NCBI GenBank assembly: GCA_009801085.1
Contig: VNWV01000022.1
Location: 124,001 to 188,000 of the forward strand
Direction of reading: 5' to 3'
Source: Lasiodiplodia sp. COLG20
Taxonomy: Eukaryota > Ascomycota > Dothideomycetes > Botryosphaeriales > Botryosphaeriaceae
Length of the DNA stretch: 64,000 nt
Shown: positions 6,674-43,027 of the stretch, in pieces
How positions within the stretch are numbered: position 1 is the stretch's first letter
Layout of the letters: every line of letters starts with the position of its first letter
Notes under the pieces: model-generated
Told to the model about the DNA's origin: nothing
The model's input: the letters and a program-made list of their open reading frames with translations, nothing else
The model's database searches: none
Translations under genes and position numbers: made by a program

Positions 6674-9600
6674 ATGCCTCAACGCAACGAGCCCATCGCC
6701 GTCATCGGCAGCGCATGCCAGTTTCCTGGCCAGTCCACAACGCCGTCGAAGCTGTGGGAGCTCCTGAAGGAGCCGCGCGACCTCTTGCAAACCATCCCGT
6801 CCGACCGCTTCAATGCGGAATCCTGGTACCACGCAGACAGCGCCCACCATGGCACCAGTAATGTTACCAAATCCTACTTTCTCGCCGAAGACCCCACCGC
6901 CTTCGACTCACAGTTCTTCAACATTCCGCCTAAGGAATGTGAAGCCATTGATCCGCAACAGCGTCTCCTCATGGAGACTGTCTATGACTCCCTCTGTGCG
7001 GCAGGCCTTTCGATGAAGAGCCTCCGCGGTACGTCGACGGCGTGCTATGTCGGCCAGATGTGCGATGACTGGTCTGGAATCATGATGAGGGATTGGGACT
7101 CGCTCCCCCAGTACACGGCTACTGGTATTTCAAGGAGCATCATGTCCAACCGTGTGTCGTATTTCTTTGATTGGCATGGCCCTTCGATGACGATTGACAC
7201 GGCCTGCTCATCGTCGCTCGTGGCGGTGCACGAGGCGGTGCAGGTGTTGAGGAGCGGTGACTCCAAGGTCGCAGTTGCGTGCGGAGCCAACCTCATTCTT
7301 AGTCCAGGTTTGTCGATGACAGTTGATAGGGATGTAGCTGTGGCTAACAAGCTGCTCAGGAATGTACATCGCGGAGAGCAAGCTGAAAATGCTGTCGCCG
7401 GACGGACGTTCCCGCATGTGGGACGAGGGAGCCAACGGCTACGCGCGCGGCGAGGGCATCGCGGCCGTGGTGCTCAAGACGCTCTCGCAGGCGCTGGCTG
7501 ATGGCGACCACATCGAGTGTATCGTGCGCGAGACGGGCTTTAACCAGGACGGGCGGACGACGGGCATCACCATGCCCAGCAACGTCGCCCAAGCAGCCCT
7601 TATCCGCGACACGTACAGGAAAGCCGGACTGGATCCGTACAGCCCCAACGACCGGCCGCAGTTCTTCCACGCCCACGGCACCGGCACCCCGGCCGGCGAC
7701 CCGCAGGAGTCCGAGGCCATCAGCCGCGCCTTCTTCAAGGACGGCGAACGGACTGACGACAAACTCTACGTGGGATCGATCAAAACCGTCATCGGCCACA
7801 CCGAGGGCACCGCCGGGTTGGCCTCTCTGATCGGCACCTCGCTCGCCCTGCAGCACAAGACCATCCCGCCCAACATGCACTTCAACAAGCTGGCCGAGAA
7901 GGTCGCTCCTTTCTACACCAACCTGGAGGTGCCCACGGCCGCGAAGCCGTGGCCCGCAGCACCCGCCGGCCAGCCTCTCCGCGCCTCGGTCAACAGTTTC
8001 GGCTTCGGCGGCGCCAACGCCCACGCCATCCTGGAGCGCTACGAGCCCGAGACGCACGGCCAAGCTGCTATTGACTCTCTGCCCCTCTTCACCCCCCTCA
8101 CCTTCTCCGCCGGCTCGGAGAAGAGCCTCCAGGCGATGCTGGCGTCGTTCTCGGACTTCCTCAAGACCAACGAATCTACCACCAACATCCGCGACGTCGC
8201 GTGGACGCTGCAGAACCGCCGCTCGGAGCTGGCCTTCAAGACGGCCGTATCGGGGCAGACATCCAGCGAGCTCGTCCGCTCCATCGACGCGGCGCTGGAT
8301 TCCAAGGAGAACCTGGGCGTGCGCGCCTCCTCTTCTACAACAAAGCCCAGCATCCTGGGCGTCTTCACAGGGCAGGGCGCGCAGTGGCCGACCATGGGCG
8401 CCGCCCTCATCCGCGCCTCGCCGTACGCCCGCGACGCTATCGCCGCGCTGGATGCCTCGCTGCAGTCGCTGCCCGAAGCGGACCGGCCGGCCTGGTCCAT
8501 CCGGGCCGAGCTCGAGGCGCCCAAGGAGTCTTCGCGGCTGGCCGAGGCCGCGCTGTCGCAGCCGCTGTGCACTGCTGTGCAGGTCGTGCTGGTGGACCTG
8601 ATCAGGGCTGCGGGCATCGAGTTCAAGGCCGTCGTCGGCCACTCGTCCGGTGAGATCGCGGCGGCGTATGCGGCGGGCTTGGTGTCGGCGAGGGACGCCA
8701 TCCGCATCGCGTACTACCGCGGCGTCTACGCGAAGCTCGCGGGGTCGAAGTCCGGCGCGAAGGGCGCGATGATGGCTGTGGGAACATCGCTGGAGGACGC
8801 CAGGGAGTTCTGCGAGCTCGAGGACTTCGAGGGCAGGCTGACGGTGGCGGCCAGCAATGCGGCATCCAGCGTGACGCTGTCGGGCGACGAGGACGCCATC
8901 GACCAGGCCGAGAAGATTTTCAAGGATGAGTCCAAGTTCGCCCGCAAGCTACGCGTCGACACGGCGTACCACTCGTTCCACATGGTGCCCTGCTCGCAGC
9001 CGTACCTGGAGGCGCTGGATGCATGCAACGTTGAGGTCGGCGAGGCCAGCACCTCGACCACTTGGTTCTCGTCGGTGATGCCGGGCACCAAGATGTCCAA
9101 GGAGACGCTGGGAAGCCAGTACTGGGTCGACAACATGAAGAACACGGTGCTGTTCTCGCAGGCTGTTTCGGCCGCCGTCAACGAGGCTGGTCCCTTCGAC
9201 CTGGCCATCGAAGTCGGCCCTCATCCCGCCCTCAAGGGCCCCTGCTTGAACAACATCGAGGACGCATCTGGCAGCCCTGACACTCCCTACACCGGCCTGC
9301 TTTCGCGCGGCAGCGACGACGTCAATGCCTTTTCTGCTGCGCTCGGCTTCATCTGGGAGCGCTTCGGTGCCGAGGCCGTCGACTTTGACGGCTACGACAA
9401 GCTGGCGTCGGGCAGCTCTGAGCCCAAGAGCCTCGCAGTCGACCTGCCCAGGTACCCTTGGGACCACGACAGGACGTACTGGTTCGAGTCGCGTGTGTCG
9501 GCCGGCTACAAGTACAGAGACACTCGCCCGCACCCCATCCTCGGCGTCAAGTCCATCGAGGGCACGACGGGGCCTCAGATCCAGTGGAGGAACATCATCA

Positions 9601-41700: not shown

Positions 41701-43027
41701 CATGATCCCGGCTGTCATGGTCCCAGTGAAGGATCTACCCATGACGGCGCATTTCAAGATCAGCCGCAAGGAGGCTATGGCACTGCCTGTGCCTGAGATC
41801 AAGAAGGCTGAGGTCGACACCGGCGCCCTTACCCCAACCGAAGCACAGCTGGCAGGCCTGTGGAGCGAACTGATACCCGGCTTGCGGAGCGTCGACGCCA
41901 GCTCACCCTTCTTTCTTGTCGGCGGTAATTCACTCATGCTGGTCAAGCTTCAGGCCATGATTCGTATGCAACTGCATGCCAATCTCAGGCTCATAGACCT
42001 CATGGAAAACGATACCTTGGGCAAAATGGCGCGGGTGGTAGAGGAAGCCGCAGACGGTGCAGCTGCCATCGATTGGGAGAAAGAGACGGCCTTGCCAGAG
42101 CTACCACCGAGTGTCGGAACCGTACCATCGAAGGACAAGGGCCTCGTTGTCATGCTGACAGGCGTAACCGGCGTCTTGGGACGAAACATGCTGGCGAAGC
42201 TGGCGGCGGACGAGCGCGTCGCGAAGATATATGCCGTCGCCGTGCGCGCGCCGATCGAAGGCCGTGTCACCACCACATCTGACAAAGTCACAATCCTCAC
42301 AGGAGACCTGGCACAGCCGCAGCTGGGCCTTGATGACGCCGAATTCAAGACACTGAGCGAGGTGGACGTCATTTTCCACGCCGGCGCCAACCGCTCTTTC
42401 TGGGACTCTTACTACGAGCTGCGCGCGACAAACGTCTACTCCGTCAAGGAGTTGGTCAGAATAGCCGCACCACGCAAAATCCCGATCCATTTCATGTCCT
42501 CGGGCGAGGTCGTAGCGTACGGTTCTGAGACTCCGCCCGTGGACGGCTCCGACGGCTACGTCAGCTCGAAGTGGGCGGCTGAGAAGGTGCTGCAGAAGGC
42601 GGCGGCCCAAGCAGGTATCGAGGTGGTGGTGCACCGACCAATGAAGTCGGATGAAGCTGGACCGGCGCCGGTTGAGGCTTTGGATGAGCTGATGGCGCTG
42701 GCACGGCAGATGGGAAAGCGGCCAGCCCTCGATGGATTGAGCGGCACGTTGGCTATTGTTCATCTATCCCAGATCGTGGATGCCTTGGCCGAAGGCTTGT
42801 TTGAGAGGAGTTCGGGAGTCAAGCATTTGAATCATGGTAGCAGCTTCAACGTGGATATTGCCGAATTCGCGGCGGCTGTCACAAAAGACGAAGAGATCAT
42901 GAAGTTGGAGGGTATGTCGGCTTTGAAGTGGACAGGCGTGGTAAAGAAGATGGGTTGGAGCATGTTTATGTTGGCACAGGAGATCTTTATGGAAAAGGAA
43001 GGTGGAAGAGTTGTTTCGAAGAGGTAA
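38722..43027 (+). CDS. Free-standing NRPS (C-A-T-R), homologous to the NRPS half of PKS-NRPS 1
   Basis: Two exons (38722-40195, 40245-43027; 49-nt intron) encode 1418 aa. The ATG at 38722 is the first in frame. After about 45 polar residues resembling an ACP-C linker, the C domain starts at VSFGQSRFWFLDQ and contains HHINMDG (His173). The A domain has FTSGSTGTPKG, YGPAEI and YRTGDKG; T has GGNSL (Ser1054); R has TGVTGVLG and Tyr1263/Lys1267 (YVSSK), so reductive release is predicted. It matches PKS-NRPS 1 along its whole length, including GVQERQ-YMG, TGYDV-LDIIENAAGDAR and the C-terminus WSMFM-QEI. The intron lies at the same C/A junction in the same phase (after GRG). Its C domain might take a chain from a PKS in trans, or condense a different acyl donor. 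The A-domain pocket differs from PKS-NRPS 1 at several positions, so the amino acid may differ. Confidence 0.94.

What the first reader, a model, noticed from the sequence alone, without database searches (positions are those of the whole stretch)
6674..43027. Two PKS-NRPS hybrids plus a free NRPS in one locus, with opposite release chemistries
PKS-NRPS 1 retains an SDR-type reductase (TGATGVLG, Tyr3850, Lys3854). PKS-NRPS 2 has Leu3824 in place of Tyr and a broken glycine loop, and the NRPS has an intact reductase. One locus could therefore make an aldehyde/pyrrolinone-type and a tetramic-acid-type product, or a joint product. Clusters with two PKS-NRPSs (for example ACE1/SYN2 in Magnaporthe) are known, but a third, PKS-less C-A-T-R partner with split release chemistry is not something I recognise.
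Basis: partly seen in the sequence, partly recalled or inferred. Interest (0 to 1): 0.85.

Follow-up and report, generated by a model that had tools for sequence, protein, structure and literature searches.

The report
Tetramate gene cluster with orphan half-synthase
A plant-associated fungus carries two complete polyketide-peptide synthases beside a third that has lost its polyketide half; the neighbourhood matches a known (macrophasetin) cluster, so the locus is mostly ordinary, but the surviving half-enzyme looks intact and what it does alone is an open, testable question.

Summary
The three megasynthases are real. PN1 (6674-18889) and PN2 (23676-35630) are complete PKS-NRPSs; NR (38722-43027) is a PKS-less C-A-T-R protein. 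Best hits are Lasiodiplodia.

The split-release reading holds for PN2 only. Database entries named for tetramate makers (prlS, phm1, iccA) keep the same reductase Tyr, so an intact Tyr does not indicate aldehyde release. PN1 and the genes to its left (hydrolase, TF, MFS, Diels-Alderase, TF, P450, trans-ER) follow the published order of the Macrophomina phaseolina macrophasetin (mps) cluster, whose products are tetramic acids. PN2 belongs to the aspyridone/ilicicolin-type clade, also Dieckmann. Both hybrids therefore probably make tetramates.

The free NRPS is explained: it is 79% identical to the C-terminal end of a complete Neofusicoccum parvum PKS-NRPS (P0129), with the same adenylation residues. 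No PKS remnant lies upstream, and a search with a related PKS found none elsewhere. NR keeps its catalytic motifs and is 96% identical in L. hormozganensis; it changes faster than P0129 but overall about as fast as PN1's NRPS half, so retention looks likelier than decay.

Verdict: a known kind of cluster with one unusual part, an orphaned, apparently intact half-synthase.

The parts
1..263 (-). 5' part of a second lipocalin-type Diels-Alderase (DA2); the rest lies upstream of the window, C15 about 123238-124263 (mpsD position)
   Evidence: Pfam DA_C/DA_N on L013:9190-9999; DA1 aligns to it at 40% across the window edge
1121..2329 (-). MFS transporter, part of the gene (mpsC position)
   Evidence: Pfam MFS_1
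3219..5329 (+). Fungal transcription factor (mpsB position)
   Evidence: Pfam Fungal_trans on 3773-5326
5694..6395 (-). FSH1-type serine hydrolase (open frame; first Met near 6335)
   Evidence: Pfam FSH1; frame read
6674..18889 (+). PN1: PKS-NRPS KS-AT-DH-MT-KR-ACP-C-A-T-R, two introns, 4034 aa; probable MpsA orthologue
   Evidence: A residues DKEDVANLD in PN1 and the four orthologues compared; R Tyr3871/Lys3875
19929..21680 (-). Cytochrome P450 (P450-1), several exons
   Evidence: Pfam p450 on 20361-20963; neighbouring frames read
21883..23060 (+). trans-acting enoyl reductase ER1 (LovC-like), two frames
   Evidence: Pfam ADH_N and ADH_zinc_N; best PDB hit of the first frame LovC
23676..35630 (+). 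PN2: PKS-NRPS, single exon, 3984 aa; R domain with Leu3824 and TGALSFFG loop (Dieckmann type)
36185..37447 (-). Lipocalin-type Diels-Alderase DA1
   Evidence: Pfam DA_N and DA_C; PDB hits Fsa2, CghA and an entry named Diels-Alderase
38722..43027 (+). NR: stand-alone C-A-T-R, 1418 aa, one intron at the same C-A position and phase as an intron of PN1; surviving half of a third PKS-NRPS
   Evidence: 79% identity to the C-terminus of N. parvum P0129; same A residues; no PKS relic upstream
46500..48074 (+). Cytochrome P450 (P450-2), probable right edge of the cluster
   Evidence: Pfam p450; no biosynthetic match in the ten frames scanned to its right within the window

Best explanation
The locus is a composite decalin-tetramate biosynthetic region. 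Its left part (trans-ER, P450, TF, Diels-Alderase, MFS, TF, hydrolase, PN1) is a macrophasetin-type (mps) cluster: PN1 with its trans-ER builds a methylated polyene chain, joins it to one amino acid (L-Ala in the Macrophomina pathway), releases it as a tetramic acid by Dieckmann cyclisation despite intact SDR residues, and the Diels-Alderase closes the decalin. Its right part carries PN2, an aspyridone/ilicicolin-type synthase with a Tyr-less Dieckmann R domain, plus a second trans-ER, Diels-Alderase and P450s. NR is what remains of a third PKS-NRPS, a paralogue of PN1 that is complete in Neofusicoccum parvum; the PKS half was lost and the C-A-T-R half kept intact. Shown here: anatomy, homology, gene order by function, missing PKS half, conservation of NR. 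Inferred: products, release mode of PN1, and that NR still works.
For: Gene order: reading left from PN1, hydrolase, TF, MFS, DA2, TF2, P450, ER2 follows mpsA, mpsB TF, mpsC transporter, mpsD LLDAse, mpsE TF, mpsF P450, mpsG ER (PMC9701702): 7 of 7 named mps genes, PN1 included, in order by function; the hydrolase falls where locus number MPH_07624 is skipped in the paper; strands were not compared. PN1 has an M. phaseolina orthologue, P0123 (85% over the searched part, 90% over residues 1-2400) with the same A residues. R domains of entries named prlS and phm1 keep Gly loop, Ser, Tyr and Lys. NR residues 41-1418 align with P0129 residues 2624-3994 at 79% and group with it in two trees (support 1.0). 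A residues DKEAVGSMA are identical in NR, P0129, P0001 and Polytolypa P0126. Best genome match outside the window to the related PKS P0221: 41% over most of its length, plus a 64% stretch limited to the KS end. Summed over domains NR shows 84-89 unique changes against P0129; PN1's NRPS half, same genus pair, shows 83-106.
Against: No held sequence is labelled MpsA, so PN1=MpsA rests on gene order, function labels and the M. phaseolina orthologue. M. phaseolina MS6 also has P0221, a PKS-only relative, which I could not exclude as the MPH_07623 model. The L. theobromae PN1 orthologue P0122 carries the label psoA, and one PN1 hit (P0131, 66%) the label ACE1. The R tree puts a protein labelled fusarin C synthetase (reductive release, recalled) in the same Tyr clade as prlS and phm1, so the tree does not settle PN1 release. 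The FSH1 hydrolase would also fit aldehyde release and ring closure (recalled). NR changes significantly faster than P0129 with 5 of 5 outgroups (p 0.013 or less): C 44-47 vs 15-24, A 26-33 vs 12-15; its A domain also exceeds PN1's (22-24). No expression data.
Confidence: 0.75

Rival explanations
1. NR works in trans on the polyketide made by PN1's PKS, so that one PKS feeds two NRPS modules and the cluster makes two tetramates with different amino acids.
For: NR keeps C, A, T and R motifs and A residues different from PN1 (DKEAVGSMA vs DKEDVANLD). PN1 is the nearest remaining PKS: P0129 and PN1 PKS parts 65-66% identical, 90-residue ACP regions 62%, against 30% for the PN2 ACP region. A passage reports an ApdA hybrid in which the NRPS part was replaced by that of CpaS (PMC7242659 passages).
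Against: NR has lost the ACP and most of the charged linker; Pfam found nothing before its C domain, though no docking-domain search was run. It has not become more PN1-like: where NR and P0129 differ, NR matches PN1 at 44 sites and P0129 matches it at 86.
Confidence: 0.25
2. NR acts alone on amino acids, making a small reduced product such as a pyrazine, without any polyketide.
For: An isolated NRPS module of the A. terreus PKS-NRPS ATEG00325 made thiopyrazine in vitro (PMC7242659 passages). The NR R domain keeps all SDR residues.
Against: Only an in vitro precedent with a cut enzyme; the C domain of NR descends from one that takes polyketide chains.
Confidence: 0.25
3. NR is a non-functional leftover still open by recent origin.
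For: The related M. phaseolina PKS P0221 lacks the KS cysteine and MT motif and stops before the ACP, so a relative of this third synthase looks decayed elsewhere. NR changes faster than P0129, mainly in C and A; its C asymmetry exceeds that of PN1 (p 0.036 and 0.002 with two outgroups).
Against: NR is open, with intact motifs and intron, 96% identical in L. hormozganensis (P0001, 7 member sequences); T and R show no consistent excess, and R has fewer or as few changes as the controls.
Confidence: 0.3
4. One reading: PN1 and NR release aldehydes (pyrrolinone type) and PN2 a tetramate.
For: Intact TGxTG, Ser, Tyr and Lys in PN1 and NR; Leu3824 in PN2. FSH1 hydrolase beside PN1. Automatic ACE1 labels on some unnamed relatives.
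Against: Gly loop, Ser, Tyr and Lys equally intact in prlS and phm1 entries, Tyr also in iccA; mps gene order with known tetramate products.
Confidence: 0.15

Closest known systems
Macrophasetin (mps) cluster of Macrophomina phaseolina (PMC9701702)
   Same: Same order by function: PKS-NRPS, TF, transporter, Diels-Alderase, TF, P450, trans-ER; M. phaseolina protein P0123 is the PN1 orthologue
   Different: The paper lists one PKS-NRPS; here PN2, a second ER, a second Diels-Alderase and NR adjoin it
Neofusicoccum parvum PKS-NRPS P0129 (no function given in the listing)
   Same: C-terminal C-A-T-R 79% identical to NR, identical A residues
   Different: P0129 is a complete 3994-aa hybrid; NR has no PKS
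Aspyridone / ilicicolin H / leporin-type synthases (ApdA, IccA, LepA)
   Same: PN2 falls with iccA- and lepA-named proteins; two hits bear aspyridone-synthetase labels (P0253, P0256); Dieckmann-type R domain
   Different: PN2 and its orthologues carry Leu at the Tyr site (8 of 325 domains); most Tyr-less relatives carry Phe (85 of 325)
ACE1/SYN2 cluster of Pyricularia (Magnaporthe) oryzae
   Same: Two PKS-NRPS genes with trans-ERs in one locus; some unnamed relatives of NR and PN1 bear automatic ACE1 labels
   Different: ACE1 and SYN2 are described as paralogues from cluster duplication (PMC8403587 passages); PN1 and PN2 are only 38.5% identical and of different clades. Not compared by sequence

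Membership tests
mps (macrophasetin) decalin-tetramate cluster | PKS-NRPS, TF, MFS, LLDAse, TF, P450, trans-ER in that order | tested here: met
   By function label, strands not compared: against PMC9701702
mps (macrophasetin) decalin-tetramate cluster | PKS-NRPS orthologous to MpsA by sequence | tested here: inconclusive
   M. phaseolina orthologue P0123 found but not labelled MpsA; P0221 also exists
mps (macrophasetin) decalin-tetramate cluster | Makes a decalin tetramic acid from L-Ala | not testable with these tools
   no metabolite data
Reductive-release PKS-NRPS (aldehyde, then pyrrolinone) | Intact Gly loop, Ser, Tyr and Lys in R | tested here: inconclusive
   Met by PN1 and NR, but also by tetramate-named prlS and phm1; not discriminating
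Aspyridone-type Dieckmann PKS-NRPS (PN2) | R domain with SDR Tyr replaced, in the iccA/lepA clade | tested here: met
   Leu3824; clade support 0.999; ApdA precedent PMC3901194 passages
Aspyridone-type Dieckmann PKS-NRPS (PN2) | Ring-expansion P450 giving a 2-pyridone | not tested
   P450s present but not assigned
ACE1/SYN2 cytochalasan cluster | Synthases group with ACE1, SYN2 or CcsA | tested here: inconclusive
   None of these sequences was in my set; automatic ACE1 labels on 7 of 120 listed hits and 1 of 120
C-terminal half of a PKS-NRPS (NR) | Full-length co-orthologue and homology beginning in the ACP-C linker | tested here: met
   P0129 alignment starts at NR residue 41

The most novel reading that the evidence does not exclude
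After losing its PKS half, the third synthase survived as a true stand-alone enzyme that draws polyketide chains in trans from the neighbouring macrophasetin-type PKS, giving the fungus a natural one-PKS, two-NRPS combinatorial system in a single locus.
Probability: 0.2. Interest if true: 0.7.

Novelty: new variant of a known kind. Interest (0 to 1): 0.42.

Why it matters
The locus shows that a quick rule for predicting release chemistry (Tyr present or absent in the R domain) can mislead, since tetramate-named enzymes keep the Tyr. It also looks like a natural dissection of a fungal PKS-NRPS: the third synthase is complete in Neofusicoccum, a PKS-only relative in Macrophomina looks degraded, and in Lasiodiplodia an apparently intact NRPS half remains. 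That makes it possible to ask whether an NRPS half can live on without its own PKS.

Tried and rejected
Rejected: Tyr/Leu as a general release test. Not adopted, not excluded: an ACE1/cytochalasan class; automatic ACE1 labels occur (7 of 120 listed hits, 1 of 120, none of 120) but I held no reference sequence. Looked for a PKS relic before NR: only chance-level matches (best E 0.067). Looked for shared promoter sequence between the three genes: none clear (58, 92 and 13 of 200 shuffles reach the score). Tested whether NR became more PN1-like: no. C-versus-R contrast in NR: p 0.003, 0.12 and 0.32 with three outgroups, so not firm; NR C versus PN1 C: p 0.036 and 0.002. PN2 against N. parvum P0244 also shows more changes on the Lasiodiplodia side (C 35-38 vs 25-31, A 53-55 vs 32-41, R 30-32 vs 15-19). 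PDB and NCBIfam searches of P450, hydrolase, ER and DA2 gave only general assignments. Pramanicin (PMC12895699, parts 1-2 of 5) has other partner genes. Paper searches listed no paper whose title or shown abstract describes this locus; most listed papers were not opened and the library lacks most subscription journals. The A-domain residues are nine positions read by motif; their mapping is recalled, and the tenth (Lys) was assumed in the script, not read.
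Full report
OBSERVATION. The finding describes real genes. Script and Pfam results give PN1 (6674-18889, two introns, 4034 aa), PN2 (23676-35630, intronless, 3984 aa) and NR (38722-43027, one intron, 1418 aa). PN1 and PN2 carry KS-AT-DH-MT-KR-ACP-C-A-T-R; NR carries C-A-T-R only. PN1 and NR are 53% identical over C-A-T-R, PN2 and NR 34%, and PN1 and NR share an intron at the same place and phase between C and A.

ORGANISM AND NEIGHBOURHOOD. Best hits are Lasiodiplodia (96% for NR and the searched part of PN1, 95% for PN2); the genome is 43.5 Mb in 88 contigs. 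In the window lie an MFS gene, a transcription factor, an FSH1 hydrolase, PN1, a P450, a LovC-like trans-ER, PN2, a lipocalin-type Diels-Alderase, NR, a HET-domain gene and a P450. Ten frames from three 10-kb flanking loci were scanned, not every frame: upstream the cluster goes on with a second Diels-Alderase crossing the window edge, a Zn-cluster factor, a P450 and a second trans-ER (LovC best PDB hit, 314 bits); farther out is a GH32-family gene. To the right of 48 kb, ten scanned frames gave trypsin-like, vWA-like, ankyrin and DUF3433 matches or nothing, and one of two frames of L014 an NmrA-like match.

MATCH TO A KNOWN CLUSTER. PMC9701702 (parts 1-3 of 4 read) describes the M. phaseolina mps cluster: mpsA PKS-NRPS (MPH_07623), mpsB TF (07625), mpsC transporter (07626), mpsD Diels-Alderase (07627), mpsE TF (07628), mpsF P450 (07629), mpsG trans-ER (07630). 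Reading left from PN1 the order here is hydrolase, TF, MFS, DA2, TF2, P450, ER2: with PN1, all seven named functions in order. In that paper A. nidulans with mpsA and mpsG gave decalin tetramic acids, for which the authors propose L-alanine and Dieckmann release; MpsD steers the ring closure. M. phaseolina holds a PN1 orthologue, P0123 (85% in the search; 90% over residues 1-2400) with identical A residues. P0123 and the PN2 orthologue P0243 are each listed with a longest contig of 704,273 bases, and an L. theobromae PN1 orthologue (P0125) and PN2 orthologue (P0242) with 412,606, suggesting that the two hybrids are linked in both genera. Caveats: no held sequence is labelled MpsA; the L. theobromae orthologue P0122 is labelled psoA; P0131 (66%) is labelled ACE1.

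RELEASE CHEMISTRY. I extracted R domains from 363 sequences (360 database proteins plus the three); 325 covered enough and 38 were dropped. At the Tyr column 231 have Tyr, 85 Phe, 8 Leu and 1 His; the middle Gly of the loop is replaced in 103. These are hits to the window's own proteins, not a random sample. Entries named prlS and phm1 keep loop, Ser, Tyr and Lys, and iccA keeps Tyr, Ser and Lys. Phomasetin is a tetramic-acid compound (PMC9055775 passages), acyl tetramic acids were reported on the ilicicolin H route of T. reesei (PMC8705728, abstract start in the listing), and pyrrolocin is recalled. So intact residues do not predict aldehyde release. In an R tree PN1 and NR join a clade of 125 all-Tyr domains that holds prlS and phm1 but also a protein labelled fusarin C synthetase, so the tree leaves PN1's release open; gene order is the better evidence. 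PN2 lies in a clade with iccA and lepA names (support 0.999). ApdA's altered Tyr with Dieckmann release is described in PMC3901194 (passages). The Leu state is rare: PN2, its three orthologues and four others.

WHAT NR IS. P0129 of Neofusicoccum parvum is a complete 3994-aa PKS-NRPS; NR aligns to its last 1371 residues at 79% from NR residue 41. NR and P0129 group with support 1.0 and share the A residues DKEAVGSMA, also seen in Polytolypa P0126 and L. hormozganensis P0001. The stretch before NR shows no PKS remnant. The genome could not be searched with P0129 itself (too long); with the related PKS P0221 the best match outside the window is 41% over most of its length, with one 64% stretch limited to the KS end on C1. 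P0221, a PKS-only M. phaseolina relative (64% to P0129), lacks the KS cysteine and the MT motif and ends before the ACP. The third synthase thus seems to have met different fates in three genera, if P0221 is indeed its counterpart.

IS NR ALIVE. It is open, keeps HHINMDG, GGNSL and the SDR residues, and is 96% identical in L. hormozganensis (cluster of 7 sequences). Relative-rate counts: NR changes faster than P0129 with 5 of 5 outgroups (p 0.013 or less), in C (44-47 vs 15-24) and A (26-33 vs 12-15) but not consistently in T or R. Control, same genus pair: PN1 against N. ribis P0124 gives C 40-48 vs 44-45, A 22-24 vs 13-23, R 15-28 vs 17-22. Summed over domains NR has 84-89 unique changes and PN1 83-106, so NR is not evolving faster than a full hybrid's NRPS half overall, though its A domain is; P0129 is slow. 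Whether the C excess is specific to NR is unsettled (p 0.003, 0.12, 0.32 against R; p 0.036 and 0.002 against PN1 C). I lean to a working protein, without proof.

HOW IT MIGHT WORK. Three options remain for NR: trans use of PN1's polyketide, autonomous use of amino acids (a cut A. terreus NRPS module made thiopyrazine in vitro, PMC7242659 passages), or a relic. PN1 is the likeliest chain donor because its ACP region is 62% identical to that of P0129, against 30% for PN2. Pfam shows nothing before the NR C domain, and NR has not converged on PN1.

NOVELTY. Cluster type: known. PN1: probable orthologue of a characterised enzyme. PN2: new member of a known class. NR: an unusual but derivable variant. 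None of the paper listings named under Tried and rejected shows a description of this locus.

Noticed in passing
PN2 A domain, window 23676-35630; P0242-P0244: PN2 orthologues differ in the A-domain pocket residues: DMVFFGWVA here, DVVLIGWVA in L. theobromae, DIAFIGWCA in Macrophomina, DMVCVGWAA in Neofusicoccum, while PN1 (5 of 5) and NR/P0001/P0129 (3 of 3) are invariant (p about 0.03 for the Lasiodiplodia pair). Amino-acid choice of PN2 may be diversifying.
   Followed up: partly
P0221 (Macrophomina phaseolina MS6): A PKS-only relative of the third synthase without KS cysteine or MT motif, ending before the ACP.
   Followed up: partly
window 43128-46013: HET (heterokaryon incompatibility) domain gene sits between NR and P450-2.
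   Followed up: no
window 6344-6436: tRNA-Phe (gaa) predicted between hydrolase and PN1, overlapping only the part of the hydrolase frame before its first Met.
   Followed up: no
G000:C1:7304226-7316208: Another PKS-NRPS-like stretch: KS end 64% to P0221, C-A-T-R 42% to P0001, some stops inside the PKS matches that may be introns.
   Followed up: no
G000:C15:76199-91110: A further KS match and NRPS-like frames lie tens of kb upstream on the same contig.
   Followed up: no
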